From: Bacteroidota bacterium
Lineage (GTDB): Bacteria; Bacteroidota; Bacteroidia; Chitinophagales; LD1
Direction: 5' to 3'
Length of the DNA: 64,000 bases
Assembly (NCBI GenBank): GCA_018267365.1
Contig: JAFDYQ010000001.1
Span: 124,001 to 188,000 of the forward strand
The translations under genes and the position numbers were made by a program. Position 1 is the stretch's first letter. Each line of letters starts with the position of its first letter. This document shows positions 319 through 41,449 of the stretch, one piece after another. The notes beneath the pieces are model-generated. The model was not told the origin of the DNA and searched no databases. It worked only from the letters and a program-made list of their open reading frames with translations.

Positions 319-624
319 GATTCTGTATTAGAAGGGTAGTTATGTACAATATGTACCCGTCTGCCAAACACTTTAGCACAAATCGCCTTGCAGTACAAGC
401 CTTTTCCTAGATTATCCTGTAGAGTAAATAGTTTGTAACTAAGTCTCTACTATATATATCGAGAAAAGTCTTATTTAATAAGGCTTTTTTTGTTGTTTGG
501 CTTACAAAATTAATTCCATCATAGCGACCTGTTATTTCGCTGGAAAAATGACAAAAGAAGGGATGAGAAATTAGTTTTTAATGTAACAAGGCTATCTAAA
601 GTCTACTCTATGAGCTGCCAAGTT
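319..624. other. Gene-free interval between tRNA-Thr and integrase
   Basis: About 300 A/T-rich bases with no convincing coding frame. It holds one hairpin with a T tract near 466-491. The promoter of the tRNA, which is transcribed leftward, must lie in the part next to 319. I see no direct repeat of the tRNA 3' end here. Confidence 0.6.
466..491. terminator. Intrinsic terminator, possibly bidirectional
   Basis: AAGTCTT at 466-472 pairs with AAGGCTT at 480-486, with an A/T loop that can extend the stem by three pairs. A run of T follows on the plus strand and a shorter T-rich stretch on the minus strand. It could end leftward transcription from the integrase at 625-1566, although the better T tract is on the plus side. 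Confidence 0.5.
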
Positions 625-1566: not shown

Positions 1567-1669
1567 GAACAAATTCTACTCTTACCGCTTTTTGAGTTGC
1601 AGTAGAGCAGATTTGCAAGTCATAATTGACACTCTGTTTTTGAATATACTTTTAAAGGAGAATAGGAGG

Positions 1670-21447: not shown

Positions 21448-21449
21448 CG

Positions 21450-22538: not shown

Positions 22539-22577
22539 TGTTGATGTATTTATTGATGAATGAATATGTCAGAGAAA

Positions 22578-23192
22578 TTATGGCATATTAAGATTTTGAA
22601 AACTTCTAAAAACTTCTAACGCATACAGTTTAGCAAACCTGTACATCCGTGAATTTGCTAGGACAGCAATTGCTAGTGGTAGGAGCATAAATTTCCAACC
22701 CAAGCAATACCATGTCGTAATAGCCAGAATATAGAAAGCAACCGTGAGACCTCTGAACATAGAATAGTTACCACTGAAAATATCTATTCTCTTTTCTGTG
22801 ACCTTATCTTTTAATGAAAGCCAATTATATACATCTCTTCCATAATCTTTAGTCGGATTATTCCCAAACTTCTGAAATACTATGGTGCGTATCGCAAGCG
22901 TCTGAGTTTGGTCGAAAAGTTCTCTTTTAAAGCGAGGTGCCTTAGTAAGCCATTGGGTAGGCATTCCTCCAAATAGCTTCCAAAAAAACGATTCAAAAAT
23001 ATTTCCTAGTGAATGTAGTATATGCCCAAGTCCGTAAGCAATGATGAAGAAGATAAGCGACTCTCCAATCTTAGAAAAGTCCATAAGTTTTACTCCATAC
23101 ACAAGACCAATTATCTGAACGGAAAAATATAAAAGCGTAACACTGGGTACTAGAATACCTACAAATTCGTAGAAAGAAAATTCCTTTTTCAT
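22578..23192 (-). CDS. Small multi-spanning membrane protein, possible effector
   Basis: A 204-residue protein, first gene of the operon. It has two hydrophobic segments at about residues 10-34 and 43-62 and a long one or a hairpin at 149-185, with a charged cytoplasmic-looking loop between. No family recognised. Membrane proteins of this size act as pore-forming effectors in several immune operons, so a similar role is possible here. It starts 150 bases from the HTH terminator, so the operon promoter must lie in 23193-23345. Confidence 0.7.
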   Translation of the reverse strand: MKKEFSFYEFVGILVPSVTLLYFSVQIIGLVYGVKLMDFSKIGESLIFFIIAYGLGHILHSLGNIFESFFWKLFGGMPTQWLTKAPRFKRELFDQTQTLAIRTIVFQKFGNNPTKDYGRDVYNWLSLKDKVTEKRIDIFSGNYSMFRGLTVAFYILAITTWYCLGWKFMLLPLAIAVLANSRMYRFAKLYALEVFRSFQNLNMP

Positions 23193-23345
23193 AAGTGAAG
23201 AAAGGGTTTAAGGATCATAATTGGATTGTTCTACAATAGCTATATATCAAAAAAGTATCCGAAGTGAATTTCGTGCCATTTTGTCGTATAACTAAATATT
23301 TAAACTAATAAATTCTCAAAGTATTCACATTTTCTAAGGTTCAAT

Positions 23346-23371
23346 ATAAAAAGGGACATATTCTATGTCCC
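23346..23371 (-). terminator. Intrinsic terminator of the left HTH gene
   Basis: Reading leftward, GGGACATA pairs with TATGTCCC over 8 pairs with a 3-base loop (23353-23371), followed by TTTTTATA. It starts six bases after the HTH stop. Confidence 0.75.
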
Positions 23372-23376
23372 TCGAT

Positions 23377-23820
23377 TTAGATTGTTTTAAGTACCCTTTT
23401 GACTGCACTATCATTTTCTGGTTTCGGAAGGTATCCTGCTTCCCACGCTCCTATCGTTGAGCCATCAACCCCCACGAGTTTGCCCATCTGCGCATGCGTA
23501 AGGCCGTGACGATACCTATAGGCCTTTACTCTTCCGGCAAAAGTGTCAGGAAAGATTGGCGGTAGCTCACCGATAAACTGTATGATTTTAGCTACAAACT
23601 TTGCAGTGGGGTCAGATTGGTTATTCTCCCAAAGCGTAACTATGTCGGTACTTACCCCTACTATCGCGGCCACGTCCTTTTGAAAAAGTCGAAGCTCCAT
23701 TCTCCGCCTGCGCAGATAGTCCCCTAATGTCTTGGGATCTGTAGGGTAACCAGTCCCATAGGGTCTTTTGACAACTACCTCCAATTCGGAAAAAGGCAAC
23801 GCAACGACAAATTCGTGCAC
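23377..23820 (-). CDS. Tandem-HTH (XRE-like) protein, left copy
   Basis: A 147-residue protein with a GTG start. It holds two HTH units: RLFQKDVAAIVGVSTDIVTLWENN (given in part, about residues 43-66) and HAQMGKLVGVDGSTIGAWEAG (about 110-130). It is closely similar over its whole length to the protein at 37537-37962 on the same strand, roughly three residues in four being identical by eye. Both start GTG and share VALPFSE. The two copies flank the exported-protein locus as direct repeats. Solitary HTH proteins of this type are common in Bacteroidota; the target is unknown. Confidence 0.78.
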   Translation of the reverse strand: MHEFVVALPFSELEVVVKRPYGTGYPTDPKTLGDYLRRRRMELRLFQKDVAAIVGVSTDIVTLWENNQSDPTAKFVAKIIQFIGELPPIFPDTFAGRVKAYRYRHGLTHAQMGKLVGVDGSTIGAWEAGYLPKPENDSAVKRVLKTI

Positions 23821-24076: not shown

Positions 24077-24625
24077 ATGACTTTGAAACCTGTATTCGTT
24101 GCCATATTCATGGCATTATCCTTTGTAACCTTTGCTCAGCGATGCGCTGATGATTCTCTTAAACTCTATCCCCCTGGCAACTTCGATTATACAGGTGAGG
24201 GTTTTGCTGATCCGAATGTTCTTCCATGTGTAGAGAGTGGAGTTTACTCAGAAATAGCTGTACCATTTAAAGTATCGGGCGCTGGTGCGCGATTCATAAC
24301 TTTAGCCGACTCAACTACGGCATCTATTCTCCATATTTATTCCGTAAGAATTGATGATGTGAATGGTTTGCCTCAAGGTTTATGTTGGACAACAAGGCCA
24401 TTATCCTCCGTCATTCATAGTGATAACGTTGGCGTTTTAATCATTAAGGGAAATTCCTCTGCCCCATCTGACTCATATCCTCTAGATGTAACTATAAGTA
24501 TAGATATCAGGGGAGATAATTCTTATACTTATACAGGCTTGCATACTGTCAGCTACAAAGCTATTCTGGGCCAACCAGTTGTAAGAATTGCCGATTCAAA
24601 CGGTAATTGTCCATTGTCGCGTTGA
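24077..24625 (+). CDS. Exported protein, first gene of surface-protein locus
   Basis: A 182-residue protein with a signal peptide (MTLKPVFVAIFMALSFVTFAQ). The mature part is beta-rich, with several Asp and Ser residues and a pair of Cys, and has no T9SS sorting end. It lies 48 bases upstream of the giant gene, so it is probably co-transcribed. No family recognised; it may help export or anchor the giant protein. Confidence 0.65.
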   Translation: MTLKPVFVAIFMALSFVTFAQRCADDSLKLYPPGNFDYTGEGFADPNVLPCVESGVYSEIAVPFKVSGAGARFITLADSTTASILHIYSVRIDDVNGLPQGLCWTTRPLSSVIHSDNVGVLIIKGNSSAPSDSYPLDVTISIDIRGDNSYTYTGLHTVSYKAILGQPVVRIADSNGNCPLSR

Positions 24626-24673: not shown

Positions 24674-27600
24674 ATGTTTACTAGACAACTCAAGGCGTTT
24701 TTCGTCATGTCTGCGCTTCTTATATCACTAGGATCCTATGCTCAGTGTTATCATTGTAGTGCACCCGCAGCGCCTGCAGAATGGGCTAGCGGAAACTTAA
24801 CCATGTACAAAAATGCAGTATTGCAGTTATGGGCATTCAAGCCTTCTGTAGCGGTTGATAGCAGACAATGGTATCGCGTAAAAAGTGCCGGAGACACTAC
24901 TTTTGTAGGAACAGGTGACACTATGACATTTGTGATGGATACTACATGCAGGTTCATCGCAAGAAACGTCAACAATTGTACATGTGGAGGGACTTATTAT
25001 AGCGCCTATACGCAAATGGCCAGCATAACAGTGGTGGACTCTCCTAGCGTTCCGCAATATATGATTTCATATGATTCTCATATGTGTAGCGGCTCACAAA
25101 CCAATATATCCGTAAAGCGGCTTACTTCTCTGACGGGAGTTTCATTCCAGTACTATAGAGATGATACCCCGAACGTTACCGGCAATGTTTCAGGAAATTT
25201 TGTAGAAGGTCCACTGGGGATTACGTTAACAAATCATACAGGATCAAACCAACAGGTGAGATTTATGATTCGCATGTATAAATCTGGAGTGTATTATGAT
25301 TCCAAGAGTTTCTATATTACAGTAACCCCCGATTCCCCTTCTGTTGGAGATCATTGTAAGTTTCCGACCGCACCTAAGATCTGGCCTTTCCCACCATACT
25401 ATTATGCCCAACATTCAATCGGGGCTCATGTTCTTCTTGTAACTGACACGACCATTACCGCTGATGGAACAGATTGGTATAAGGTACTGTACGGCGATAC
25501 AACTTATGTTGGCAGCGGGTCCAAAGTGTCAATCGTAATTGATACCGTATGCCAATACATTGCTCGTAACAAGAATTTCTGCAATTGTGATTCGGGCACC
25601 TATTACAGCTCGTATGCACTTATGTCTATCATGCCAGTTGGTATTGGGAATCGAAATCTTTTTCATGTTCTGAATTATACAGATACTATGGCCAGCGGCA
25701 GCGAGACGGATATAGTGCTTCGATCGGATTCCGGCTACCAAAGCTATTTCGAGTTTTGGAGAGATAATGCCTTGGTAACAGGAGCTACCTACTTGGCAAA
25801 TGCCACAAGCATCGGTACAAATTCAGAGGTATTCGCGACCAAATTAACGAATACAACATCTGTGCCTCAAACCGTAAGATTTTACATACGGGGATCAAAG
25901 GCCGGAGTATACTACGGAGATACTTACATGGGCTACTTCACTGTAATGCCTGCACAAGACTCCGTTGCAACTGGTAGCCACTGCACAGTTCCCCCTAAGC
26001 CCACCGCGAATGTTGGAACCTCCGTCACATACGTAAAGGGAGCCACAATATACCTGAACCTTCAGGGAGCTACGAACATTGCCGGAGCCTATAATATTGC
26101 GCTCAACAGCGGCGATTCCGTGGAATACTTTAAGTCTAGAGGGCCAGGAGATACTACGTATGTTGGATCTGGAATTCCACAGCCTGTGACTGTCGATACA
26201 ACCATCAAGCTTTATGCCGTAAGCAAAAATGTATGCACATGGTCTGACGGTAGCAAGCACATTCTCAAAAGTGCTCCGTCCTATCTGAATACTATCGTTT
26301 CTACTAGCGGAACTTCGGCTGTTCTTAATATGCTGAACAAAAAGCCAACAATTTGCAACGGGGACAGCGTAAAAATTATTGATTCCATTTATGCCTCCAC
26401 GCCATCGGTTCTTTGGTACAGGAGTAATCAACAACAAGTGCTCGGTACTTATTCAGGCTCGACAGGTACGACAAGCGTAGGCCCAACAATCAGCCCTGTG
26501 CTAACAGACACCGGAACGGCTCCCCAAAGGGTCGACTTTATATCTTTTTCAAAGTATAGTAGTTCAGTATACAATTCACAGCATTACACCTCGGTAACTA
26601 TATATCCAGCATGTAGTAACTGGTCTGGCTTTGGTACCGCTATTCATGCGCTAAAAGATTCCATTTGTCCAGGTGACACTACTACTCTTACTGCCGATAC
26701 GGTGCCAGGAATCGGTAGCCACTATGCATGGAGTACCGGTGATACAACCAAGAAAATTAATCTAACTATCGGTGGCACATATTCTGTGACCGTGACTAAT
26801 TTGTGTGGATGTTATGCGACTGCAACTCATTCCATTTTTTTAAAGAGTAATCCTGTTCTATCTGTCAATAATGATACAATTTGCCCTGGCCAATCGGGCG
26901 AATTGGTAGTCCATGGCGCCAATAATTATAGTTGGAGTTCTGGGCAATCAGACAGCATAATTTTTCCCATTGATACTGGTATATATACTGTGACAGGTAC
27001 CGGGATAACTGGTTGCGTTCAAACTATACAAGCACATGTTAGTGCTGCAACGCCGCCAATTATTTCAGTCAGGGACACTAGCTTCTGTGCCGGAGATACG
27101 GCTTATGTACATGCTTATGGGGGTGTAAATTATGTTTGGAATACAGGCGATAGCGGATCTAGTATACCTGTATTCGGATCAACGATCTTGTCAGTAACCG
27201 GTTTTGATAATAGAGGATGCTATTCAAGCGCTATATCAACAATTCGAGTGCTAGACAGACCTGTAATAACAATGGAAGATACAATTGTTACTCGTCAAAG
27301 GGACTCAGTTCAACTGTGTTCTTCTGTTAGTTTTGGTCAAAGGCCTTACACTTATTCCTGGTTACCTAATACACAATTGTATCAGACAAGTGATAGATGT
27401 GTCATGGTGTATCCTGACTCTTCAGCTTTTTACACAGAAACTGTTACTGACAGTAACGGTTGTACTGCTAGTAAAGGTGTATACATCAATGTTGATCCCC
27501 GAGGAGATTCTATTAGCATTTTAGTTTTGTCTGATACACTTTTGGGTATTAAGGATACTCTGCCAATAATGGTTTCCAAAACTGTATCTGTATCATTTAT

Positions 27601-30600
27601 GAACAATGGAAATGGGAACTATGACGATTCATTGATCATAATCGGCGGATTTGACTGTGACTCCTGCGTGACTGTCACTCAATTGCGCTTAATGTCATCT
27701 TTGAGCACATTGTATGAGATCGACAAGCCAACCTTTCCTATTGTCATTCCGCGAATCATCATCCCGCAGGGAGCAAGTCTGCGGATGGAAGAAGATCTTA
27801 TCTCTATACACGACTCTTGCTTGAGCCAGCTATGCTCGCAACTCGTTTCATTGCAATGGAAAGATAAAAGCGAGTTTAATTCTACGTCACAAGTTCCAAT
27901 AAGCGTAACACACCGCCCTCGAAGCACAGGGCCAGACTTGACAGTACAGATGATTTCTTCAGGCATTAGTACTTGTGGGGGGGGCTCTGTGACAGTAGCT
28001 TTCTCTTCGAATATTAGTAGTGATTTCCAAATATCGATTACTCCACCTGCAGGCGCTACCGTAAGTCTTACCGGTTCGATCATACCTTCAGGTTTCACGG
28101 CATCTGTAAGCGGCAATCAAATTATCATTTCTACTCTAAGCCCGACTTCCTACATCGCAGGCACTTCATATTCCTTAACTTTCCAGGAGCAGCTGCCATG
28201 CAGTTTTGTCGTTCAAGGGGTGATTAATTTAGCGCACCTAGTGGAGGTGTCCAATTACAGCGGAAGTTATTCTATAGATAACGGGCCAACGAACACAAAT
28301 CAAAACCATTATGTCCCGTTAACGTATTCAAATATTGTTCTTAGCGGTAATGGCACCCAAGGCGTTGGAATGCACTTGGGCACCCCAACGATATTTGACT
28401 TAAGATATCAAAACTCCGGAAATCAAGCTTTTACAGGGGCATTGACAATAGACCAGTCTGCATCCTGCAATGCTTCGGTTGCTATCTCGTTAGTGCAGAT
28501 ATTTGAAATAGGAAATCCGACCCCGATATGGACATCTCCAGCCAATCCGGTATTCCCCTTAGTAACTTCTTCTATCTCGATTCCTGCAAATTCCTCTTTC
28601 TATATTGAAGAAACTGCTTCTCTTATTTCTAATTCCTGTTTGCAGCAGCCGTGCCAAACACATGCTACCCTTACATGGTCATGTTCTACCGGGGCTTGCA
28701 GTAGAGCAACTTCGCCTTGGACCATAAATTTCAACCCAGCCAACGGTAGTCCTGCGATTAGCGCGTCAAGATTGCTTCCAAGCCCTATTCCATTCAGCTT
28801 TTATAATGCGGGCTATCCTTGGGAAGTATCATGTGCTGATCAAGGGGCTTCCTCAGAGACACAATGGGATTATATAGTAGAAAATAATGGTCAAGGTGAT
28901 GCAAATAACGTCCGCATAGAACTTGACAAATGGATAAATGAAAGTTATACTTTTGTAGATGAAAGCACTGTTGGAGTGAATGTAAGAGCAAATGTGTATC
29001 CCAACATTGCATTTACTTCTTCTGCAACTCTTGGAATAGGAACTCCGGCGGTAACCTATCTTACTAGCGCAGATTTCTCTGGTACTCCTCCGGCATGCTT
29101 AAATTCCCTCCAGGCCCCCTTAAAGACGTGGGAAATACAGATCAATACGATGCCGGCTGGCTCGCGTATTCTAGTGAGCTTTAAGACATATAAATGCTGT
29201 CCTAGTAACGCAGATTTTGGTGATCCGATCTATTTTAATCAGTGGCATTTGACAATGCAAGGAGAAGATTGCTCCGGTAACAGTATTTCGACGCATGGTG
29301 CTGGCCCAATTAGCCTCAATGGCATTGTGACGCAAAATTCAAATACAAACATTCCAAACCTTGGCCTCACTCAAGACTATGTTCATCAGAGAAGTGAGAT
29401 TCGTGGCGTCAATAATTCATGTGGAGACTTTGAGCGTTTTTTAATTCAAAATCATACGTTCAACAATCCAGGAAGCAATAATACTCCGGACTATGATGCA
29501 ATGCTTTTTAGCCCTCATCCTACAACTGGGGGTACTTCAGGGTTGCAAGGTGGCGATCCTACGGGAACGATGCGCGTGATAATAAATTGGCAAGGCAATA
29601 TGCAATCACATGCAACCAACTTCTCGATTTTCAAAGGAGCAATAAATTGGAGCCCGACTTCCGTCACAGTCTTATCATCCACCAGTATACAGGCTGATTT
29701 TGACATTGCGACAGTAGCAGCGCAGATTGGAGCGGCGCAGATTAATAATCCGGCTTATAATGATTTCAGTTCGGGATTTAGGGATTTCCTTGCGGAATCA
29801 TATATCGGATTCGAACTGAAAGCATGCTGCCCTACTAATGTTCCTAATCCCGATATAACGGTTCAAACTTTGATTAATCTTGCTGGATACAATCAATGTC
29901 ATGACTGCTTTGTGCCGCTCGCTGAAACTACATTCCATCTCCAGGTGCATTGTCCCGGATGTGTTACCCCTGGCTTGATTTGCGATAAGAGTACATTTCA
30001 CCGGACTACTTTAGGTTATCAAGATGCAGACGATGATGGAAGGCCTGAGCCAGCCACAAGCGGAATGACCCTACAAAACATCGATGCGACTTACCAAGCA
30101 GATCATGCGCTCCTACTTGAGCGCTCAATGGTTGGTGACATATTAGAGGCGAGAGTTAGCGCCTTTTTCGAAAATGGTGATGGGACAACAAATGGTTTTT
30201 CTTATACTGATTGGCAAAATTATTGGTCTGGCAATGCTTGGGGTAGCCATCCATCAGGAGCGACTCCGTATCTCGATGACTTGTATCTGCAACAGGACAT
30301 CCCTGGAGCTAGTGCGGTCGGCCTTGCCAGTACAGGCATTATTACAGTCAATTATATTCCTCAGACCGGATCGCCTATTTCGTTTTCAGCATCCGGCGCA
30401 AATCCTATCATCGTTTCATCCAGCGGCGACCATTTCGTCTACCATGTGAATGCCTCAGATTTCGCATCTGGATTGCATTTTCTTATTGGCGATAGATTTG
30501 AGTTTGTCATGGGCTACAGCGTGTGCGGGAATCCATCTATAAAGACAGATTTAGATATTACGAATGAAATGTATTTGACTCCTTCGCCCCTGAGTAGTGT

Positions 30601-33600
30601 CTCTAACCCATATTCTAACTATACAACAGCTCCTAGTGAAAATGATAATCTCCACTACCCTGGCCCTGCTGGTTTATCGCCCGACGCCAGTTATCTATAT
30701 TATTGTGAAGGTTTCAGTGATTATCACAGCGTTTATAATGTTCATAAAACATCGGGGGAAGCTTGGCCTGCTGGCGCTTTTTGCACCGGAACAATGAATT
30801 TGAGTTACGCAGCGGCAGTAACTTCCGACGGAACTAATCCGGCCTTAAATGTCTTTCCTTATGAATATCGACCTTTGCGTAGTGTTTCTACAGCTTATCA
30901 AACCGGGTTGACATTAACGAATGGAAATCCCATTACTGCAACTGTAGCATCCATCACTGGATACATAATTTCCCCATCGCGGATTTATACGGATTGCAAA
31001 TTTTACGATAATATCATTACTCAACCGATCATACGGACGCAGACCACTACTCCGCTTCAGATAGCTAATTCTGGAAATGACTACTATTTGAATATGGCAA
31101 ATGCTGAGTATATTCCTCCTTTCGACAATGTATTACCATTTAATTCCAATCCTTCATCCGCTCCGATATTGAATCAAAGCATAGCATCTAACGGCAAGCA
31201 AATTCTGGCAATCGGTGACGAGCGTTTCTCACAGGTTTTCGAATTTAATGTGGAGACTAATTGCCCCAGCGTAACTGCTGCATCTAAAACAATACGCGCT
31301 GATGACGCCTATCTTACTGTTCCTGGCAGCGTTACTTCCTGTACTGTTTCTGATGTAAGTGAACAGAATGGCCCGCATTCAACAGGAGTATGGACCCTTA
31401 CAATTCCCAATCCCAATATTCAAGCCTCACTTTCCGCTCCCATATTTAATCAAAATACCATTTCCTATAACTTAAATATGACGCTGAATGCTAACGTGCC
31501 CAATTTAATCTACTATATAGACGTAGATCCAAACAGCGTAGCAGCAGGTGTCTCTTTGGTGGTGTCAGACGGTCACGGAGTTATCAATCCAATCTCAGTG
31601 GTTACCCCAACCACGACATATTGGAGATATAACCTGAGCTATGCTTTGGCGAATTCTACAACGGCCGACATTGCATTAAAATTCCAATTGAATAATTGTG
31701 GTAGTGTGCCATCCAATCAATCGATTGATATTTGGTATGCATGGAGTTGTTCGGGTCATGAGCTAGCCCAACTTCCGCCTATAGCCACTACTTGTGACGC
31801 CCCGGCTAAAGTAACCGTGCCTCTGGTTATCCCAAGTCCCAATTTAGTTTTGCAGTCTAGCTTTGATCCCACAGACTATAAGACTTGTCAGGTCGAAACT
31901 CTCAAGATTGTTCTGACAAATCAAAGTTTGGCATCTGTAGGATTAACGGGACTTCAAGTCACATTGCCTAGTGGCGTATCCCTCATACCAGGCAGTCCGG
32001 TAAAATTGATTTTCACTCGTCCTAGTCAGAGTGCTTCAACGATTAACGTCGCGAGTTCTTACATCACGGGCGGGTATATTAATCTAAAACCGTATGCGGG
32101 GTATATAGCTTCTGCCATATCAGGCATAGATGGATTTAATCTGGATGATGGTACTATAGAAATAGATGTACTATTTATTGCCGATTGCCATACGAATACA
32201 TCCAACAGCATACCTGTTTCCTTTACGCTCGATGCGACGCCTTACTGCGACCCCACGGGTGCTACGCCTGCGGACGTAATTATTCTAAATAGTCCAACAG
32301 GCTATGCAATTCAGCCTAATGCAAATCCCAATGCCTGCGGCCCGTTCTTTACCTATACTTATCTGTGTAATGATCAACTGACCATCAATGCAACTTCCGG
32401 ACATGCTCCTTACACTTACTACGTCGGTACCACCCCTTACACAACGAACATAATACAACCCAATGCCGGGACTTATAACATTTATGTCAAGGACAATAGC
32501 AATTGCACCGCAGACCCTATCAGCTTGACTACATACGGGGTACTCTCTGTATCAGCCGCAGGCGTTTCAGCTAACTGCTCTGTCAACGCTGCTACCGTGA
32601 CTGCCACCGTAGCAGGGGGATTAGCGCCGTATACGTTTTCCTGGAGTAATGGGAGCTCCACAACATCTTCCGCCACAGCAAACACAATAAGCGGGTTGTC
32701 ATCTAACACTTACAGCGTCACCGTAACTGACGCCCAAGGATGTTCAGTCACCGCATCGGCTTCTGTTACTTCAGCTACTTCGCTACTAAATGTTCATCTT
32801 ATTTCTAGGCCATATGGTTGCACTCCTGACAAGGGAACAATCGACCTCGATTTCGTCGGAGGATCAGCTCCATACGCCTACGTATGGTCCTCGAGCACAA
32901 ACATTACTCCTGCCACACAAAGCGGGTTGCAGGCCTACAATACCTATACAGTTACGATTACGCAATTTGGCAGCTACACTGTCACAGTGCATGACAATTA
33001 CGGTTGCAGCGTCACAGCGAGCGCAAACGTAAATACGCCAGTGAAAGTAGGTTCCAATGTATCACTTCCCACGCTATCCTCGGCCATATCTGCGAGCAGG
33101 TTGGTTTCGTCTGCCTTGTCGGGTACCACGCCACAGTCCTTCATCGTAGATGGCACATTCACAGTCGATCAGGCTTACACATTGTTTAACAGTAATGCAT
33201 ACTGCCTGGAAGGTGCTGAAATCATTGTAGACGATCCCGGTCGGCTTACTATAAGCCAGTCCACATTGCAGGGCTGTGATTACTTATGGAAGGGTATCAC
33301 GGTGAAAAACAAGGCTTTTAATATGGATAACAGTCAGATCAGCGATGCTCTCTATGCGGTAGAGTTTCGCAGGCCCGGCCATTCCATAGCAACTCTCACT
33401 CCTATACAAAACTGTAGGTTCCTAAACAACTTTATAGGCATCTATATACCAACCAGCCCTGCCGATTTTACTGGCTACCAGTTCTTTGACAACCTGTTTG
33501 ATGGTACGGGTGGCATCAAGACGCCATATACCAGCCTGCCACTTGCTTTGGGCCTCATGCCTACTCAGACTCAAATATCAAGCATAGGACAGAGCTGGGC

Positions 33601-35947
33601 GGGTATTTACGCGCAGAACGCCTTGGTATTTGTATACTCCACACAGCACTCCTATGCTACCGGGGCTGGAACACACTTCAAAAACATGTGCAATGGGATC
33701 ATGGCAGAGGGCTGTGACCTGCGCAGCTACGGCAGCATATTTGAGAATATGCCCCCTTCGTCATACTATACAAACTCCGGAGCGGCTATATATTGCGATG
33801 GATCTGTGAATGGCGCTGGCCCCCTTGGCTGGACCAATCTTCAGGTATTTGGCGGCGCCTTGGGAAGTCAATATGTCAGTAATCTGACTAACTTTTCGAA
33901 TTGCTTTGCAGGAGTAGTAGCTAAGAATCTCCGGACCAATTTGGAAATCACATCAAACAATTTTGACAACCTATGGGCTGGAATAAGTGTGATGAGTTGT
34001 AATAATATGTCGGGTTTGAAAGTGTCAAATAGCAAGATGACGAATATTAGCCTTCGGGGAATTAATATAGTAGACTGCTCTTCTGCCGACCCCGAGATTA
34101 CAGCTAATGCAATAAGTACCTTAGGTACCTCTTATCTGATACCAGGGTACATAGTTCCAGCTGTGGGGATTGATCTCCAAAATATGCAAGGACAGCATGT
34201 AGTAAATTTGCCAGCCTTTACTTCTGTAGATGGCAATGTTGTAGATCTAATGGCTCACTCTTTTGCTGGCATTAATATTGCCTCAATAATAAGTGGTGAC
34301 TATTATGATAACTTATATTCGGCCAACCACGTGAAATTTCACGATAGCGAGAATCAATACGGGCTGTGCATAGCAAACACCAGACAGACCTCTTATTGCA
34401 ACTTGGTAAATGTAGACAATACAGTGTTCAGTGCTCCGGTGCCTCTCTCTACAGGCAAGCATATCGGATTCCTCTTTGCTTCCGTATCCGGCAAAAGGAT
34501 TATCATGAATCATGCTATAGGAACTAATATCGGAATGTTGTTTAACAATAATAACCTAGGACTTGTAGGGAGCTATTCGATCTCAGACAACACGTTTCAG
34601 GATCATAATACGGGATTATACATCCCCAGCCCTACTCAGATCCCGGCACAGAGCTATTTGTCATTCAATAATTGGTCGGGATCATATGGTAATGGTGGAC
34701 ATGCGGCCGTGAATACCAATTCTTCGTTTATAGTGGCTAATCAGCACTTTGATGTAAATTCTCCGATTGGCACTACAATTTATTGGCCAAGAAATAGCAG
34801 TACTACTTTAGATATATTTCCTAGTTCTAATTGGTTTAGACATGTAAGCAATTCAGCTTCTCAGTCATCTGTTGAGCAGCCCTGTTCGCCTGCACTACGA
34901 GTAGCTGCACCAGCGGATACAGATACAACTACAGTATTAACTGATATGGATGAAGCGGTGATCAATGGAGAGATAATGGATTCAGACCTGGCTCCCTATC
35001 AGGCCACCATGCTCTGGCAGGTAGAGAAAAGTGTATATGATAAGCTGAAGCAGCACCCAGAGATGAGGCTGAGCGGATCGGCAGAGGAATACTTCTACGA
35101 TCAGCGCACCGCTACCAGCATAGGCCACATCAGCGATATAGAGGACCGCCTAGAGCAGGAGCTCAGTGCCCTGCCAGAGGGGCTCTACACCCTAATGCAG
35201 CAGAAACACGCGCAGGACTCTATCAGGGACTCTATAGTCAGCCTTCTCAATGGCAAGCCGAGTGAAGATTCAATCACCCTGACCTTGCTAATGCCCATAG
35301 ACAGCGGCATCTATACGTTGGACAGTCTTATCGGCGTCGGCCATGACTCACTGATGGCGGCGCGACTAGCCAATCTGGGTCCAATTATTAGTGATATTGA
35401 TACGTTAGGTGATGACAGCTTGGATATTGTTCAGAATGCAAAGACTGTTTACAAACGATTTGCAACTATACAGGCGCACGGTTGGGGAGTGGATAGCATC
35501 AGTCCTACTGACCGCAGTAATATAGAGTATGTAGCAGCGCAGTGCCCACTGCAGGGAGGATATCCTGTCTATGCAGCTCGTGCCGTCAAGGCGCTTTGGA
35601 GCCATGATACATATGTGGATGATAGCATTTGTGCAAATCCCCCAAGCTATAAAACTTACCGCGCTCCCGCAGCATATCACTCCCCTTCGCCAAAGAAACA
35701 AAGTGTAAAGGTCTATCCTAATCCTACAGATGGTGTGCTTTATATTCGCTATACCTATGATCCAGATGCAGATTGCCTACTCACTATCATGGATATGGAA
35801 GGCAGGCTGGTGCGAAGCGAAAAGCTTATATTTACTCAGGGTACGCTCCGCTATGATGTAGGTGACCTGCCATTTGGTTTGTATTGTGTCAGATTACAGC
35901 GTAACGGTGAAACCATCTACTCCGATAAGATCAATATCGTAAAATGA
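24674..35947 (+). CDS. Giant secreted surface protein with T9SS sorting domain
   Basis: A 3,757-residue protein with signal peptide MFTRQLKAFFVMSALLISLG. Residues 25-650 hold three tandem ~205-residue modules that begin with a Cys-Pro rich box. Residues about 655-860 hold Ig/PKD-like repeats (WSTGDTT, WSSGQSD, WNTGDSG). A long middle part contains DUF11-like and other beta domains. Residues about 2570-2790 carry SprB-like repeats (AGGLAPYTFSWSNG, GGSAPYAYVW). Residues about 2820-3390 look like a right-handed beta helix, followed by a helical region. The last ~80 residues, with VKVYPNPTDGVLYI, are a type A T9SS signal for export and surface attachment. It overlaps the next gene by 4 bases. Likely an adhesin or gliding-type protein. 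A G8 tract lies at 27977. Confidence 0.88.
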   Translation: MFTRQLKAFFVMSALLISLGSYAQCYHCSAPAAPAEWASGNLTMYKNAVLQLWAFKPSVAVDSRQWYRVKSAGDTTFVGTGDTMTFVMDTTCRFIARNVNNCTCGGTYYSAYTQMASITVVDSPSVPQYMISYDSHMCSGSQTNISVKRLTSLTGVSFQYYRDDTPNVTGNVSGNFVEGPLGITLTNHTGSNQQVRFMIRMYKSGVYYDSKSFYITVTPDSPSVGDHCKFPTAPKIWPFPPYYYAQHSIGAHVLLVTDTTITADGTDWYKVLYGDTTYVGSGSKVSIVIDTVCQYIARNKNFCNCDSGTYYSSYALMSIMPVGIGNRNLFHVLNYTDTMASGSETDIVLRSDSGYQSYFEFWRDNALVTGATYLANATSIGTNSEVFATKLTNTTSVPQTVRFYIRGSKAGVYYGDTYMGYFTVMPAQDSVATGSHCTVPPKPTANVGTSVTYVKGATIYLNLQGATNIAGAYNIALNSGDSVEYFKSRGPGDTTYVGSGIPQPVTVDTTIKLYAVSKNVCTWSDGSKHILKSAPSYLNTIVSTSGTSAVLNMLNKKPTICNGDSVKIIDSIYASTPSVLWYRSNQQQVLGTYSGSTGTTSVGPTISPVLTDTGTAPQRVDFISFSKYSSSVYNSQHYTSVTIYPACSNWSGFGTAIHALKDSICPGDTTTLTADTVPGIGSHYAWSTGDTTKKINLTIGGTYSVTVTNLCGCYATATHSIFLKSNPVLSVNNDTICPGQSGELVVHGANNYSWSSGQSDSIIFPIDTGIYTVTGTGITGCVQTIQAHVSAATPPIISVRDTSFCAGDTAYVHAYGGVNYVWNTGDSGSSIPVFGSTILSVTGFDNRGCYSSAISTIRVLDRPVITMEDTIVTRQRDSVQLCSSVSFGQRPYTYSWLPNTQLYQTSDRCVMVYPDSSAFYTETVTDSNGCTASKGVYINVDPRGDSISILVLSDTLLGIKDTLPIMVSKTVSVSFMNNGNGNYDDSLIIIGGFDCDSCVTVTQLRLMSSLSTLYEIDKPTFPIVIPRIIIPQGASLRMEEDLISIHDSCLSQLCSQLVSLQWKDKSEFNSTSQVPISVTHRPRSTGPDLTVQMISSGISTCGGGSVTVAFSSNISSDFQISITPPAGATVSLTGSIIPSGFTASVSGNQIIISTLSPTSYIAGTSYSLTFQEQLPCSFVVQGVINLAHLVEVSNYSGSYSIDNGPTNTNQNHYVPLTYSNIVLSGNGTQGVGMHLGTPTIFDLRYQNSGNQAFTGALTIDQSASCNASVAISLVQIFEIGNPTPIWTSPANPVFPLVTSSISIPANSSFYIEETASLISNSCLQQPCQTHATLTWSCSTGACSRATSPWTINFNPANGSPAISASRLLPSPIPFSFYNAGYPWEVSCADQGASSETQWDYIVENNGQGDANNVRIELDKWINESYTFVDESTVGVNVRANVYPNIAFTSSATLGIGTPAVTYLTSADFSGTPPACLNSLQAPLKTWEIQINTMPAGSRILVSFKTYKCCPSNADFGDPIYFNQWHLTMQGEDCSGNSISTHGAGPISLNGIVTQNSNTNIPNLGLTQDYVHQRSEIRGVNNSCGDFERFLIQNHTFNNPGSNNTPDYDAMLFSPHPTTGGTSGLQGGDPTGTMRVIINWQGNMQSHATNFSIFKGAINWSPTSVTVLSSTSIQADFDIATVAAQIGAAQINNPAYNDFSSGFRDFLAESYIGFELKACCPTNVPNPDITVQTLINLAGYNQCHDCFVPLAETTFHLQVHCPGCVTPGLICDKSTFHRTTLGYQDADDDGRPEPATSGMTLQNIDATYQADHALLLERSMVGDILEARVSAFFENGDGTTNGFSYTDWQNYWSGNAWGSHPSGATPYLDDLYLQQDIPGASAVGLASTGIITVNYIPQTGSPISFSASGANPIIVSSSGDHFVYHVNASDFASGLHFLIGDRFEFVMGYSVCGNPSIKTDLDITNEMYLTPSPLSSVSNPYSNYTTAPSENDNLHYPGPAGLSPDASYLYYCEGFSDYHSVYNVHKTSGEAWPAGAFCTGTMNLSYAAAVTSDGTNPALNVFPYEYRPLRSVSTAYQTGLTLTNGNPITATVASITGYIISPSRIYTDCKFYDNIITQPIIRTQTTTPLQIANSGNDYYLNMANAEYIPPFDNVLPFNSNPSSAPILNQSIASNGKQILAIGDERFSQVFEFNVETNCPSVTAASKTIRADDAYLTVPGSVTSCTVSDVSEQNGPHSTGVWTLTIPNPNIQASLSAPIFNQNTISYNLNMTLNANVPNLIYYIDVDPNSVAAGVSLVVSDGHGVINPISVVTPTTTYWRYNLSYALANSTTADIALKFQLNNCGSVPSNQSIDIWYAWSCSGHELAQLPPIATTCDAPAKVTVPLVIPSPNLVLQSSFDPTDYKTCQVETLKIVLTNQSLASVGLTGLQVTLPSGVSLIPGSPVKLIFTRPSQSASTINVASSYITGGYINLKPYAGYIASAISGIDGFNLDDGTIEIDVLFIADCHTNTSNSIPVSFTLDATPYCDPTGATPADVIILNSPTGYAIQPNANPNACGPFFTYTYLCNDQLTINATSGHAPYTYYVGTTPYTTNIIQPNAGTYNIYVKDNSNCTADPISLTTYGVLSVSAAGVSANCSVNAATVTATVAGGLAPYTFSWSNGSSTTSSATANTISGLSSNTYSVTVTDAQGCSVTASASVTSATSLLNVHLISRPYGCTPDKGTIDLDFVGGSAPYAYVWSSSTNITPATQSGLQAYNTYTVTITQFGSYTVTVHDNYGCSVTASANVNTPVKVGSNVSLPTLSSAISASRLVSSALSGTTPQSFIVDGTFTVDQAYTLFNSNAYCLEGAEIIVDDPGRLTISQSTLQGCDYLWKGITVKNKAFNMDNSQISDALYAVEFRRPGHSIATLTPIQNCRFLNNFIGIYIPTSPADFTGYQFFDNLFDGTGGIKTPYTSLPLALGLMPTQTQISSIGQSWAGIYAQNALVFVYSTQHSYATGAGTHFKNMCNGIMAEGCDLRSYGSIFENMPPSSYYTNSGAAIYCDGSVNGAGPLGWTNLQVFGGALGSQYVSNLTNFSNCFAGVVAKNLRTNLEITSNNFDNLWAGISVMSCNNMSGLKVSNSKMTNISLRGINIVDCSSADPEITANAISTLGTSYLIPGYIVPAVGIDLQNMQGQHVVNLPAFTSVDGNVVDLMAHSFAGINIASIISGDYYDNLYSANHVKFHDSENQYGLCIANTRQTSYCNLVNVDNTVFSAPVPLSTGKHIGFLFASVSGKRIIMNHAIGTNIGMLFNNNNLGLVGSYSISDNTFQDHNTGLYIPSPTQIPAQSYLSFNNWSGSYGNGGHAAVNTNSSFIVANQHFDVNSPIGTTIYWPRNSSTTLDIFPSSNWFRHVSNSASQSSVEQPCSPALRVAAPADTDTTTVLTDMDEAVINGEIMDSDLAPYQATMLWQVEKSVYDKLKQHPEMRLSGSAEEYFYDQRTATSIGHISDIEDRLEQELSALPEGLYTLMQQKHAQDSIRDSIVSLLNGKPSEDSITLTLLMPIDSGIYTLDSLIGVGHDSLMAARLANLGPIISDIDTLGDDSLDIVQNAKTVYKRFATIQAHGWGVDSISPTDRSNIEYVAAQCPLQGGYPVYAARAVKALWSHDTYVDDSICANPPSYKTYRAPAAYHSPSPKKQSVKVYPNPTDGVLYIRYTYDPDADCLLTIMDMEGRLVRSEKLIFTQGTLRYDVGDLPFGLYCVRLQRNGETIYSDKINIVK
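24746..26616 (+). repeat. Three tandem modules of about 205 residues
   Basis: Modules start near 24746, 25349 and 25976. Each begins with a Cys-x-(x)-Pro box (CYHCSAPAAP, HCKFPTAP, HCTVPPKP), then a strand region with GDTT(F/Y)VG, an aromatic-Cys segment, and ends in a strand with VRF or VDF and KxGVYY or KYSSSVY. DNA identity is low, so the duplication is old. Confidence 0.6.
27977..27984 (+). repeat. G8 tract inside the giant gene
   Basis: Eight G in a row encode Cys-Gly-Gly-Gly at about residue 1,101. A one-base slip would truncate the protein far before its T9SS signal. Confidence 0.85.
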
Positions 35948-37458
35948 AAAACCTGATCGGATTATTTTTTCTATGCTTCTCATTGGCGGGCTTATCCCAA
36001 AAGGAGGATTATGTCTGGCTTTCTGGGTATCACTCAGGAGCATTGTACGATTCAACTATCCATCATTACTTTGCTATAGATAAAATTGATTTCAACAGTT
36101 CGCCACCCCGGGTCAGTCTAGATACGGACATCACAATCAATTTTGATGCTTCAGTGGTTAGTTTTTCGGACAGCAATGGCAATCTCCTTTTTTATAGCAA
36201 CGGCATCGAGATAAGAAATAAATGGGATGAAGTGATACAAAACAGCCGCCCGATGAATGACGGATGGGTGGATAACGTTTATAATCCTAGTATTCTAAGT
36301 TATGGATATCCACATGCAGAGGCGATAATGGCTTTGCCTGTTCCGGGATCTAGAAGCGATTTTATTTTCTTCCAATGTTTCGGAGATTCGACGCCAGGTA
36401 TTACAAGTATTAATTGTCCAAAACTACTTACAACATATCTCTCTATGGCTGATAGCAATGGACATGGTAAGGTCCATTATCGAGATAGTTTACTTCTTGC
36501 TGACATTATCACGCCAAACATAACGGCATGTAAACATGCTAATGGAAATGATTGGTGGATATTGGTAAGCAAGCAAAATTCAAATTGCTATTATCGGATC
36601 CTTCTTACAGATAGCGGAGCAAAGGTTTTACCTGATCAATCCTGCCTCGGAGAAATAATTCCTTTCGACGATGGCGGGATATGCTCTTTCTCTCCGGATG
36701 GTAGTAAGTACGCTGCGTTGAACTATATGAAGGGAATGATGCTGTATGACTTTGACCGTTGTACCGGTCTTTTATCTAATACTCACTTTTATCCTATACC
36801 TAATTTAGTAGACTCTGGATGGATATTTACAGGAGCTACATTTTCCTCCAATTCCCGCTTTTTGTATGGCACTATAGGAATGTATTTGCTACAATTTGAT
36901 ACTTGGCAATCTGATCCCCTTTCAAATCCGGATACGATAGCCAGATTTGACGGCTTTGCAGATCCATTGGGTTCATATTATACCAATGGCCAACTAGGAC
37001 CAGATGAAAAAATATATATCACTGGTAATGCAGAAGGAAACTATAGTGTTATTGATTCCCCTAATCTCAAAGGAGCAGCCTGCCAATTCCGTCCGCATGG
37101 TCTAAATATGCCAGCACTTAGTTGGGGACCTCCCAATCATCCCAACTACAAACTAGGCAAGCAGATCGGAGGAGCATGTGATTCTACTCATATTGGCATA
37201 GCGGAGATAGATGCTGGTGCTGGCATACGCATATCACCCAATCCGGTATTGTCCACCGGTGTGCTCACGATCTATGCGTCTGGAGATGGCATGGTACAGT
37301 TCACGGATGGCATTGGCAGGACAGTCTATATGTCTGATCTGCATGCTGGATCTAATGCCATCCCCTGCGATGCGCTCCATACGCAGGAGGGGATGATTTT
37401 CTACTCCGTACAACTTAGGCACGGCACGGCTAATGGGAAGGTAGTGATAATGCGATGA
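35944..37458 (+). CDS. Secreted protein with T9SS sorting domain
   Basis: A 504-residue protein that starts inside the stop of the giant gene (ATGA). It has a signal peptide (MKNLIGLFFLCFSLAGLSQ) and a beta-propeller-like body with short motifs such as SDSNGNLLFYSNG and FSPDGSKYAALNY, seen in a common Bacteroidota surface family. The C-terminus has the T9SS pattern ISPNPVLSTGVLTIYA followed by short strands. It is therefore exported through T9SS, as is its neighbour. It may bind or present the giant protein. Confidence 0.78.
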   Translation: MKNLIGLFFLCFSLAGLSQKEDYVWLSGYHSGALYDSTIHHYFAIDKIDFNSSPPRVSLDTDITINFDASVVSFSDSNGNLLFYSNGIEIRNKWDEVIQNSRPMNDGWVDNVYNPSILSYGYPHAEAIMALPVPGSRSDFIFFQCFGDSTPGITSINCPKLLTTYLSMADSNGHGKVHYRDSLLLADIITPNITACKHANGNDWWILVSKQNSNCYYRILLTDSGAKVLPDQSCLGEIIPFDDGGICSFSPDGSKYAALNYMKGMMLYDFDRCTGLLSNTHFYPIPNLVDSGWIFTGATFSSNSRFLYGTIGMYLLQFDTWQSDPLSNPDTIARFDGFADPLGSYYTNGQLGPDEKIYITGNAEGNYSVIDSPNLKGAACQFRPHGLNMPALSWGPPNHPNYKLGKQIGGACDSTHIGIAEIDAGAGIRISPNPVLSTGVLTIYASGDGMVQFTDGIGRTVYMSDLHAGSNAIPCDALHTQEGMIFYSVQLRHGTANGKVVIMR

Positions 37459-37536: not shown

Positions 37537-37962
37537 TTATCCAATCAATCTTCTAATCATCACCTCATTTTCAGGATTCGGCAGATACCCCGCCTCCCAG
37601 GCTGAAACTGTAGAACCGTTTACGCCGACAAGCCTGCCCATTTGAGCATGCGTCAAACCATGAACATACCGATATGCTTTTACTTTTCCCGCAAATGTAT
37701 CGGGCAAGATCGGCGGTAGCTCACCAATGAATTGTATGATTTTGGCTACATATTTGGCGGTAGGGTCAGACTTGTTGTTCTCCCAAAGCGTGATGCAGTC
37801 TTCGGTTACGCCTACGATTTCCGCCACATCCTTTTGAAGAAGCCTGCGCTCCATCCTTTTGCGTCTTAGCCAGTCCCCTAGAGTCTTCGGATTTGCTGGA
37901 AAGCCCTGTCCGTAAGGTCTTGGCACTATTATGTCGATTTCGGAAAATGGCAACGCAACCAC
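37537..37962 (-). CDS. Tandem-HTH (XRE-like) protein, right copy
   Basis: A 141-residue paralogue of the protein at 23377-23820, with a GTG start at 37962, [20 protein letters not shown] as the first HTH and [21 protein letters not shown] (given to its end) as the second. Its start sits exactly where comM stops making sense, in another frame of the same strand. Transcription from the comM promoter should therefore run into it. The HTH body and terminator look intact, so it is probably expressed. Confidence 0.8.
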
Positions 37963-39019
37963 ATGGATTCATAGAAGCAATAAGCATAAAGCTGGCAGGA
38001 TACGTCACAGATGTCCGTGCACGGCTAATAGTGACACGCCGCTCCTCCATAGGCTGGCGCATCACCTCCAGCACAGTACGCTTAAACTCCGGCAACTCAT
38101 CCAAAAAAAGTACCCCATTATGGGCCAGAGATATTTCGCCCGGTTGCGGATTAGCTCCGCCGCCTACCAAGGCGACATCTGAAATAGTGTGATGGGGAGA
38201 TCTGAATGGCCTTTGATAGATGAGTGTCGCATTGCGCGGCAGCTTGCCTGACACGGAGTGTATCTTGGTAGTCTCCAGAGACTCCGGCAGCGTGAGTGGC
38301 GGCAGGATGGTAGGCAGTCGCTTGGCCAGCATTGTTTTGCCGGCACCCGGAGGGCCGATGAGTATGACATTGTGGCCACCAGCGGCTGCTATCTCCATGG
38401 CACGCTTTATATTCTCCTGACCCTTCACATCTGCAAAATCCAGATCAGAATGCAGCACGTTATCCATAAACTCCGCCCTGGTATCTACCACCGTAGGGGC
38501 TATCACCCTATCTCCATTAAGGAAATCTATAACCTCTGTCAGCGTCTCAGCGCCGTATACTTCCAGATTATTGACTATTGCCGCTTCCCGCGCATTCTGC
38601 TTGGGAAGAATAATACCTTTAAATTTTTCTTTTCGCGCCTGTATAGCTATAGGGAGTGCCCCTTTGATAGGCTGCAAGGTACCATCCAGTGATACCTCTC
38701 CCATGATAATATATTCGCTTACTCTCCCCGGGTCCTGTATTTGCTCCGATCCTGCCAGAATACCTACCGCTATGGTAAGATCATATGATGATCCCTCTTT
38801 GCGGATATCTGCCGGAGACATATTGACTACTATCTTGCGGCGGGGCCAGTGATAGCTGAGGTGCTTTATAGCAGTCTCTATCCGAAACTGGCTCTCCTTG
38901 ACAGCGCTATCAGGCAGGCCTACCAGAAAGTAGTCCTTGCCATTCTCTACACTCGTCTCTACAGTGATCGTGACGGCATCTACACCATAAACAGCACCTC
39001 CGAAAGTTTTAACCAGCAT
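37961..39019 (-). pseudogene. comM: comM / YifB Mg-chelatase-like AAA protein, truncated
   Basis: About 353 codons match ComM, a hexameric helicase that helps branch migration during natural transformation. The N-terminal Lon-like domain fills residues 1-180. Walker A is GPPGAGKT (222-229), Walker B is LFLDEL (304-309), and the conserved [13 protein letters not shown] segment ends at residue 353. Full-length family members have about 500 residues. Here the frame goes straight into the HTH gene out of register and stops at 37766 after about 64 unrelated residues. The lost part includes the arginine finger and sensor 2 region, so the product should be inactive. No C-terminal half was found elsewhere in the window. 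Confidence 0.82.
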
Positions 39020-39195
39020 ATGACTGAAATAGGCGTTGAATTTAATGATTCGCTAGTAATCTGCTATACCGTAAAAAGGATAGGGGTATTGTCAAATAGA
39101 ACTTTGTGTGATACAAATAGTGAACACCATATATCTGTGTGCTTTTATTTACTTTAGAATACCTGAGTGAATAGGGGTCTCCTCATCAAAAAAAA

Positions 39196-40491: not shown

Positions 40492-40514
40492 AATGGATTT
40501 TTTCAACTCATAAC

Positions 40515-40522
40515 TATATTTG
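40515..40522 (+). promoter_or_regulatory. Bacteroidota -7 promoter element TATATTTG
   Basis: An exact TAnnTTTG match lies 21 bases before the start codon at 40544, leaving a leader of about 15 bases. It also serves as evidence against the earlier TTG start at 40520, which lies within the element. Confidence 0.5.
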
Positions 40523-40543
40523 ATCTCGACCAAAAATCAGATC

Positions 40544-41374: not shown

Positions 41375-41419
41375 AGCGATTTTCAGATCGCTCCTTCGTT
41401 CGCCGATGCAACTTTACCC

Positions 41420-41427
41420 TATATTTG
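41420..41427 (+). promoter_or_regulatory. Bacteroidota -7 promoter element TATATTTG
   Basis: An exact TAnnTTTG match lies 22 bases before the hemolysin III start at 41450. Confidence 0.5.
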
Positions 41428-41449
41428 TGACCAGTACAAAATAGGCAAG

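What the first reader, a model, noticed from the sequence alone, without database searches (positions are those of the whole stretch)
24674..35947. 3,757-residue modular surface protein with three old N-terminal repeats
Seen: three ~205-residue Cys-Pro-led modules, Ig/PKD and SprB-like repeats, a beta-helix region and a T9SS end in one gene. I do not recognise the N-terminal module. Inference: a giant adhesin with a new repeat type at its tip.
Basis: partly seen in the sequence, partly recalled or inferred. Interest (0 to 1): 0.5.

Follow-up and report, generated by a model that had tools for sequence, protein, structure and literature searches.

The report
Swappable head on giant surface proteins
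A giant bacterial surface protein starts with a head, made next to a small helper protein, that related bacteria also put on quite different giant proteins, including toxin-like ones, so the head looks like an interchangeable targeting or delivery piece.

Summary
The 3,757-residue ORF (24674-35947) and its three ~205-residue N-terminal modules are real. They are not a wholly new repeat: each is two beta-sandwiches, a PKD_5 C-half (over Pfam's cut-off in the window) and a remotely Ig_7-like N-half (below it).

The surprise is what the head is attached to. The ~700-residue head occurs in five genes, in 4 of 7 genomes of this genus and in no other of 396 sampled genomes of the order. All 10 head pairs align (40-55%); only 1 of 10 body pairs does. 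Three bodies end in a T9SS tail (one weak); two are Rhs proteins without one, one of them ending in a TNT toxin domain. Conversely, relatives of the window's body without this head occur in five other genomes. All five heads have, 20-61 bp upstream, a ~180-residue, apparently secreted protein of no known family (window 24077-24625). Integrase or conjugation genes lie within 0.6-2.3 kb of three heads and about 22 kb from the window's.

Best reading: a mobile partner-plus-head cassette giving adhesins and toxins a common targeting head. Target binding is inferred. Closest known arrangement: TANFOR polymorphic toxins, whose defining domain was not found.

The parts
24077..24625 (+). Upstream partner gene, 182 aa, apparent signal peptide (by eye), four invariant Cys; conserved upstream of all five heads
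   Evidence: Homologue ending 20-61 bp before the head gene in 5 of 5 loci, 41-62% identical, Cys 23, 51, 103, 178 invariant; no Pfam family over a cut-off
24674..24745 (+). Apparent Sec signal peptide, residues 1-24 (ends ...SYAQ)
   Evidence: Read by eye from the translation; no predictor was run
24746..25354 (+). Head module 1 (residues 25-227); PKD_5 half at residues 136-220
   Evidence: Pfam PF19406 27.8 bits, cut-off 25; AlphaFold2 model pLDDT 89.8, two beta-sandwiches; most conserved module, 60-75% among four heads, 45-46% to the fifth
25355..25981 (+). Head module 2 (residues 228-436)
   Evidence: 35% identical to module 1, E 2e-30
25982..26608 (+). Head module 3 (residues 437-645)
   Evidence: 27% identical to modules 1 and 2
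26609..26848 (+). Conserved Ig/PKD-like linker closing the shared head (residues ~646-725)
   Evidence: 60-77% identical among five heads; sub-threshold Ig_7 matches at this place in two relatives
26849..27499 (+). Further PKD-like repeats (residues ~726-942)
   Evidence: BLAST to repeat arrays in relatives and a sequence pattern
27500..32353 (+). Body, middle region (residues ~943-2560), no Pfam family; has relatives without this head
   Evidence: Matches in six other genomes (G049, G005, G008, G006, G002, G091) of 99 searched; five examined
32354..33160 (+). SprB-like/PKD-like repeats (residues ~2561-2829)
   Evidence: Pfam SprB 23.8 bits, below the cut-off of 28, best stretch 2635-2661
33161..34843 (+). 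Probable right-handed beta-helix (residues 2830-3390)
   Evidence: Low-confidence model and weak Foldseek matches; relatives in L100 and L101
35711..35932 (+). T9SS type A C-terminal sorting domain (residues 3680-3753)
   Evidence: PF18962 38.4 bits, TIGR04183 25.2 bits, both over the cut-off
35944..37458 (+). Downstream gene, 504 aa, overlaps the giant gene by 4 bp; appears to go with the body, not the head
   Evidence: 30% identical to the gene after the paralogue (E 3e-48) and 37% to the gene after the body relative in G008 (E 2e-100); no relative within 3.5 kb downstream at G004, G005 or G006 heads

Best explanation
Window genes 24077-24625 and 24674-35947 form a partner-plus-head cassette joined to a body. 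Shown: a small, apparently secreted partner gene lies just upstream of a shared N-terminal head (three Ig_7-like/PKD_5 module pairs plus a linker), and this head is joined to different bodies: T9SS-tailed giant proteins (window, its paralogue, G006) and Rhs proteins (G004, ending in TNT, and G005). Shown: relatives of the window's body exist without this head. Inferred: the head is the distal, target-contacting end. In the T9SS-tailed forms the C-terminus would be held at the producing cell's surface, putting the head at the tip; in the Rhs forms it would be the targeting or delivery end of the toxin. Inferred: the partner, exported by Sec, binds the head in the periplasm or outside, as chaperone or co-receptor. 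Inferred: the cassette spreads on integrating or conjugative islands and gets fused in front of new bodies.
For: Heads: 10 of 10 pairs align at E<1e-3 (best piece 40-55% over 790-972 aa); bodies: 1 of 10 pairs (window/paralogue, 22% over 343 columns at the C-terminus). Body types by Pfam/NCBIfam: DUF7948 plus T9SS tail (paralogue); T9SS tail, 20.5 bits against 27 (G006); SpvB/FG-GAP/RHS/TcdB-mid/TNT (G004); DUF6443/Rhs core (G005). Partner in 5 of 5 loci, 41-62% identical, and only at head loci among 107 held sequences, many of them overlapping. Body without head: in G005 C7 and G049 the similarity starts at ORF residue 41 and 84, behind an apparent signal peptide; G006 C201 has a relative next to the Mg-chelatase-like (comM, name recalled) gene that also lies next to the window's operon. 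SprA is 93.7-94.3% identical among G000, G004 and G005, while heads in these genomes are 40-51% identical. Mobile-element genes: relaxase and coupling protein 0.6 kb and more upstream of the paralogue's partner gene, Phage_integrase gene about 0.8 kb upstream in G006, Phage_integrase gene about 2.3 kb upstream in G004; in the window a recombinase-like ORF about 22 kb upstream, 61% identical to a second one at G004 and 31% to the Pfam-confirmed one. SprA in 4 of 4 head-bearing genomes.
Against: No binding or export was tested. Ig_7 domains are in 30 of 30 genomes searched, so such arrays may be mere spacers. Module 1 and the linker are the most conserved parts, which fits a constant partner or export machine as well as a target. 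The two Rhs forms show no T9SS tail at E<=0.1, so their export route is unknown. Only five heads are known, all in draft assemblies of one genus; 3 of 7 genus genomes lack it (one 96% complete). No mobile-element gene was found at the G005 head, by a motif search that also missed the G006 integrase. Gain rather than loss of the head is not proven, and the G006 relative next to comM points the other way from the window's gene.
Confidence: 0.45

Rival explanations
1. The head is a trafficking/export domain, as proposed for TANFOR, and the partner its periplasmic chaperone or adaptor; it carries any C-terminal body to the outer membrane and does not itself recognise targets.
For: The Rhs forms share the head but show no T9SS tail. 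The partner is directly upstream in 5 of 5 loci, the position of EagR chaperone genes for T6SS Rhs proteins (position recalled; those papers seen only in a listing). TANFOR heads too are N-terminal on toxins including TNT and GIY-YIG (PMC7073777, first part and passages).
Against: Three of five head proteins have a T9SS tail of their own (one below the Pfam cut-off), so would not need a second export signal; relatives of the window body without this head exist; heads diverge far more than SprA.
Confidence: 0.25
2. The modules are only stalk or spacer; the sharing reflects ordinary recombination among Ig/PKD repeat genes and the partner gene hitchhikes.
For: Ig_7 domains are abundant in these genomes (64 matches in the own genome). 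Best trees of module 1 and modules 2-3 differ, although one topology survives both tests at 0.05.
Against: The shared unit is always N-terminal, with the same partner, in 5 of 5 loci, and this head was found only in one genus.
Confidence: 0.22
3. The head-body fusions are assembly artefacts of draft genomes.
For: All five come from multi-contig assemblies.
Against: Five uninterrupted open frames of 1,952 to about 3,760 residues in four genomes.
Confidence: 0.02

Closest known systems
TANFOR polymorphic toxins of Bacteroidetes (PMC7073777; first part and passages read)
   Same: N-terminal head of large, mostly Sec-signal-bearing proteins, variable C-terminal toxin domains (TNT and GIY-YIG among them), neighbourhoods enriched in T9SS tails, SprB and PKD repeats
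   Different: No TANFOR match in the three proteins scanned; the head here is Ig_7-like/PKD_5, also sits on T9SS-tailed proteins, and has a constant upstream partner gene
Pfam PKD_5 (PF19406) and Ig_7 (PF19081) domains
   Same: C-half of the module is PKD_5 in the window; N-half has an Ig-like fold and Ig_7 domains as its best outside profile matches
   Different: N-half is not called Ig_7 by Pfam; the ~205-residue pair as a three-module head was found only in this genus
Grappling hook protein GhpA of Aureispira (PDB 9fly, 9flx, 9flu, 9g8b, 9flw, 9flv)
   Same: N-half aligns to GhpA domains: best row Z 7.0, rmsd 1.9 over 83 residues, 22% identity. A review passage describes T9SS-secreted heptameric hooks on prey flagella (PMC11205867; that these are GhpA is recalled)
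   Different: Only a common fold is shown; antibody and T-cell-receptor chains score up to Z 6.2 on the same half. No evidence for a heptamer, hook or predation here
Rhs polymorphic toxins
   Same: Two of the five head-bearing proteins have an Rhs core domain over the cut-off; one ends in TNT
   Different: The window protein has no Rhs match; the same head also sits on non-Rhs bodies

Membership tests
PKD_5 (PF19406), C-half of the module | Pfam gathering score of 25 bits, window protein | tested here: met
   27.8 bits for the whole protein; 45.8 bits, three stretches, for the window head alone. In the other four whole proteins: over in G006 (37.3), below in the paralogue (15.0) and G005 (20.6), not listed in G004 at E<=0.1
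Ig_7 (PF19081), N-half of the module | Pfam gathering score of 27.3 bits in the window's own N-halves | tested here: not met
   No Ig_7 match of the window head at E<=10. Relation seen only the other way: 8 of 38 outside matches rescanned, Ig_7 first in all 8. hhalign N-half/Ig_7 10.4%, shuffles at most 1.03%, but the C-half scored 19.2% against the same Ig_7 rows, so this is not specific
T9SS type A substrate | Por_Secre_tail C-terminal domain | tested here: met
   38.4 bits Pfam, 25.2 bits NCBIfam, both over the cut-off
T9SS type A substrate | T9SS core gene in the genome | tested here: met
   SprA 2430 bits at G000:C19; other core genes not searched
T9SS type A substrate | N-terminal Sec signal peptide | not tested
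   Looks typical by eye; no predictor at hand
TANFOR polymorphic toxin | TANFOR domain (TIGR02542) at the N-terminus | tested here: not met
   NCBIfam scans of the window protein (E<=1) and of the G004 and G005 proteins (E<=0.1) list none; whether that model is in release 20.0 was not checked; paralogue and G006 not scanned
Rhs polymorphic toxin (window protein) | Rhs core domain / YD repeats | tested here: not met
   None at E<=1
Rhs polymorphic toxin (G004, G005 proteins) | Rhs core domain TIGR03696 over 32.5 bits | tested here: met
   44.4 and 33.1 bits
Rhs polymorphic toxin (G004, G005 proteins) | C-terminal toxin domain | tested here: inconclusive
   TNT 63.3 bits, over the cut-off, in G004; no family for the G005 C-terminus
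Rhs polymorphic toxin (G004, G005 proteins) | Immunity gene downstream | tested here: inconclusive
   ORFs of 84 and 152 aa start 15 and 9 bp downstream; no Pfam family at E<=0.01
Grappling hook protein GhpA | Heptameric hook on prey flagella | not testable with these tools
   Fold similarity of one sub-domain only

The most novel reading that the evidence does not exclude
A mobile two-gene targeting cassette in Bacteroidota: a small secreted partner and a common Ig-like head that can be fused in front of either T9SS surface adhesins or Rhs toxins, so that one recognition/delivery head serves both attachment and killing.
Probability: 0.4. Interest if true: 0.75.

Novelty: new variant of a known kind. 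Interest (0 to 1): 0.58.

Why it matters
How tail-less giant toxins of Bacteroidota leave the cell and find targets is unsettled: the TANFOR paper hypothesises T9SS export and says that further work is needed (PMC7073777). A head shared between T9SS-tailed proteins and tail-less Rhs proteins, with one constant partner gene, gives a direct test: express partner and head, ask what they bind, and ask whether they change export. If right, giant surface proteins and polymorphic toxins can share an interchangeable N-terminus, and bodies cannot be annotated from their heads.

Tried and rejected
A wholly new repeat fold: rejected for the C-half in the window (PKD_5) and unlikely for the N-half (Ig-like).

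PDB relatives by sequence: none at E<=10 for module 1 or the module profile; the N-half profile gave four antibody chains at E 0.23-0.5. Partner: two rows at E 0.36 and 0.83; one sub-threshold Pfam row, Y_Y_Y, E 0.12, in 1 of 5 members.

Head and partner in plasmids and in viral contigs: no relative found.

Recombination between modules: the best trees for module 1 and for modules 2+3 reject each other, but ((W,G006),(G004,G005),G000b) is rejected by neither at 0.05 (pAU 0.052 and 0.156), so it is not claimed.

GhpA kinship: a fold-level match only, close to unrelated Ig chains, not claimed.

hhalign: N-half against Ig_7 is weak (10.4%), and the C-half scores higher against the same Ig_7 rows (19.2% over 32 columns). 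The 98.6% of the C-half against PKD_5 rows is circular, since 6 of the 7 rows came from the module profile; the Pfam scores are not.

Errors mended on the way: minus-strand loci were read in the wrong direction (redone); the G006 row of the first partner alignment was a wrong ORF (the right one from the same output was used). The recombinase motif search missed the G006 integrase that Pfam finds, so its negative for G005 is weak.

Promoter/terminator scan and RNA fold before the head gave nothing beyond chance for promoters and folding; two terminator-like sites against 0.6 expected lie inside the start of the partner gene and were not followed.

Papers: PMC7073777 first part of six and passages; PMC11205867 passages; others only as listings; searches returned no paper. 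None of the titles listed concerns this head or partner; that it is not in print is not shown.

Full report
OBSERVATION. The ORF at 24674-35947 encodes 3,757 residues without interruption. The three N-terminal modules are real: residues 25-227, 228-436 and 437-645, pairwise E-values from 2e-30 to 7e-11. The T9SS tail is over the cut-off in two libraries. SprB is present but below the cut-off. The beta-helix rests on a weak model (mean pLDDT 54) whose best Foldseek rows are beta-helix proteins (by recall) at E from 7e-3, none at E<=0.001.

WHAT THE MODULE IS. Pfam PKD_5 matches the C-half of module 1 over the cut-off (27.8 bits against 25). In whole-protein scans of the other four head proteins it is over the cut-off in G006 (37.3), below it in the paralogue (15.0) and G005 (20.6), and not listed at E<=0.1 in G004. 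In head-only scans 5 of 5 match at E<=10, the window head with three stretches and 45.8 bits. A profile of 16 modules gives 20 matches outside the head loci in 30 genomes of the family, and all 20 start at model position 92 or later of 209, that is, near or in the C-half. The N-half profile gave 38 outside places at E<=0.1 in 298 genomes, the best at E 1.2e-4. Eight of the 38 (those handed out as loci) were rescanned: Pfam puts Ig_7 first in all 8, over its cut-off in 7. Direct hhalign of the N-half against 20 Ig_7 rows is weak (10.4%; five column shuffles at most 1.03%), and the C-half scores 19.2% against the same rows, so this comparison does not single out the N-half. AlphaFold2 of module 1 with 16 module rows gives mean pLDDT 89.8 and beta-strands throughout. 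In the second structural look the two halves align separately to Ig- and FN3-like chains; the N-half's best bacterial row is GhpA of Aureispira (9fly_A, Z 7.0, rmsd 1.9, 83 aligned, 22% identity), while antibody and T-cell-receptor rows reach Z 6.2; no row reaches Z 8. So the module is best read as a diverged Ig-like (Ig_7-like) plus PKD_5 pair.

THE HEAD IS SHARED. With the five-head alignment, 4 of 7 genus genomes match, and 4 of 396 sampled genomes of the order match at E<=1e-20, the same four. At E<=1e-3 with the window's head alone, 6 of 60 relatives match, the two beyond the genus only weakly and mainly in the PKD_5 part. One scan of GTDB contigs returned three loci whose contig lengths equal those of G004, G006 and G005 (JAFDYN010000014.1, JAOQAO010000094.1, DDEZ01000007.1). 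The own genome has two copies: the window and contig C25. Three genus genomes lack a match: G002 (96% complete), G001 (77%) and G003 (73%).

THE BODIES DIFFER. All-against-all BLASTP of the five N-terminal parts: 10 of 10 pairs align at E<1e-3, best pieces 40-55% over 790-972 aa. Of the five bodies: 1 of 10 pairs (window and paralogue, 22% over 343 columns at the C-terminus). Paralogue: DUF7948 and a T9SS tail. G006: T9SS tail below the Pfam cut-off (20.5 against 27). G004: SpvB, FG-GAP, RHS repeats, TcdB middle region, Rhs core and a C-terminal TNT domain. G005: DUF6443 and an Rhs core. No T9SS tail is listed for G004 or G005 at E<=0.1. ORFs of 84 and 152 aa start 15 and 9 bp after the two Rhs genes, possible immunity genes, without a Pfam family.

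THE BODY ALSO OCCURS WITHOUT THIS HEAD. Residues ~943-2560 of the window protein match in six other genomes of 99 searched; the G091 match is short and was not examined. In G005 (C7) and G049 the similarity begins at ORF residue 41 and 84, behind an apparent signal peptide. The G006 (C201) protein also starts with a signal-like peptide, and its best BLAST piece begins at residue 293. The G002 protein has another N-terminal part, and the G008 copy is cut by a contig end. The head search gave no match at these places. The G006 C201 gene lies next to a gene 90% identical to the Mg-chelatase-like (comM, name recalled) gene right of the window's operon. On its other side follow the histidine-kinase, endo/exonuclease-phosphatase and hlyIII genes in the window's order (window 37766-42172; three DNA blocks, 66-78% identical). 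But the giant gene there points the other way. The gene after the window's giant gene (35944-37458) has relatives after the paralogue (30%) and after the G008 body (37%), and none within 3.5 kb downstream at the other three heads.

THE PARTNER. DNA similarity extends upstream of the heads in four loci because of a conserved gene for 176-183 residues, present in all five. It ends 20-61 bp before the head start in 5 of 5 loci; the proteins are 41-62% identical with invariant Cys at window positions 23, 51, 103 and 178. No Pfam family over a cut-off. Among 107 held sequences (680 kb, many overlapping) it occurs only at head loci; this is weak evidence of exclusivity, because whole genomes could no longer be searched. 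Further upstream no gene is shared, apart from one 63-residue ORF similarity between two loci.

MOBILITY AND DIVERGENCE. Upstream of the partner gene lie: relaxase (0.6 kb) and coupling-protein genes at the paralogue; a Phage_integrase gene about 0.8 kb away at G006; a Phage_integrase gene about 2.3 kb away at G004. In the window a recombinase-like ORF (625-1572) lies beside tRNA-Thr (245-318), about 22 kb from the partner gene; it is 31% identical to the Pfam-confirmed G004 integrase and 61% to a second one there, and the ORF beside it (ATPase by its motif) is 66% identical over 202 aa to one at G004. None was found in the G005 stretch by a motif search that also missed the G006 integrase. 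How often such genes lie near comparable genes was not measured. SprA is 93.7-94.3% identical among G000, G004 and G005 (84% to G006), while heads in those three genomes are 40-51% identical: the head either evolves fast or moves between lineages.

MECHANISM. Shown: head sharing, different bodies, constant partner. From established knowledge (recalled): T9SS type A substrates are held at the surface through their C-terminus, so the head would be distal. Inferred: the head contacts targets, the partner binds the head, the cassette spreads on islands. The main rival is a trafficking head of the TANFOR type (PMC7073777). I prefer recognition because three of five proteins carry their own tail and heads diverge strongly, but the margin is small.

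VERDICT. The more interesting result is the partner-head cassette shared by T9SS-tailed proteins and Rhs proteins.

Noticed in passing
window 19099-23820 (-): Operon-like group: ThiF (E1)/JAB fusion protein, metallo-beta-lactamase-fold protein with weak LmuA similarity, Csx27-like membrane protein, double HTH protein; PADLOC matches suggest a ubiquitin-like defence system.
   Followed up: partly
window 13582-15955 (+): AAA_21 ATPase followed by a protein with an HNH-like Cys/His pattern seen by eye, reminiscent of Septu (name recalled, not tested).
   Followed up: no
window 245-2857: tRNA-Thr, recombinase-like ORF and an ATPase-like ORF at what may be the left edge of an integrated island; a coupling-protein-like ORF follows at 9328-12420. 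No second copy of the tRNA 3' end was found in the window.
   Followed up: partly
L028 2916-8099 (G005, upstream of the head operon): 1,727-residue ORF, collagen-like by eye, same strand, about 1.1 kb before the partner gene.
   Followed up: no
head module 1 versus modules 2-3, five heads: Best trees disagree: module 1 pairs the paralogue with G004, modules 2-3 pair G004 with G005 (both Rhs bodies). One topology survives both tests.
   Followed up: partly
L092 end and L100 start (G008 contigs C40 and C32): The two contigs share a stretch of identical translation, so the G008 body relative probably runs across both; not joined.
   Followed up: no
L102 2241-7523 (own genome, contig C36): 1,760-residue protein with the genome's best PKD_5 match and repeats 36% identical to the window protein's residues 664-963.
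   Followed up: no
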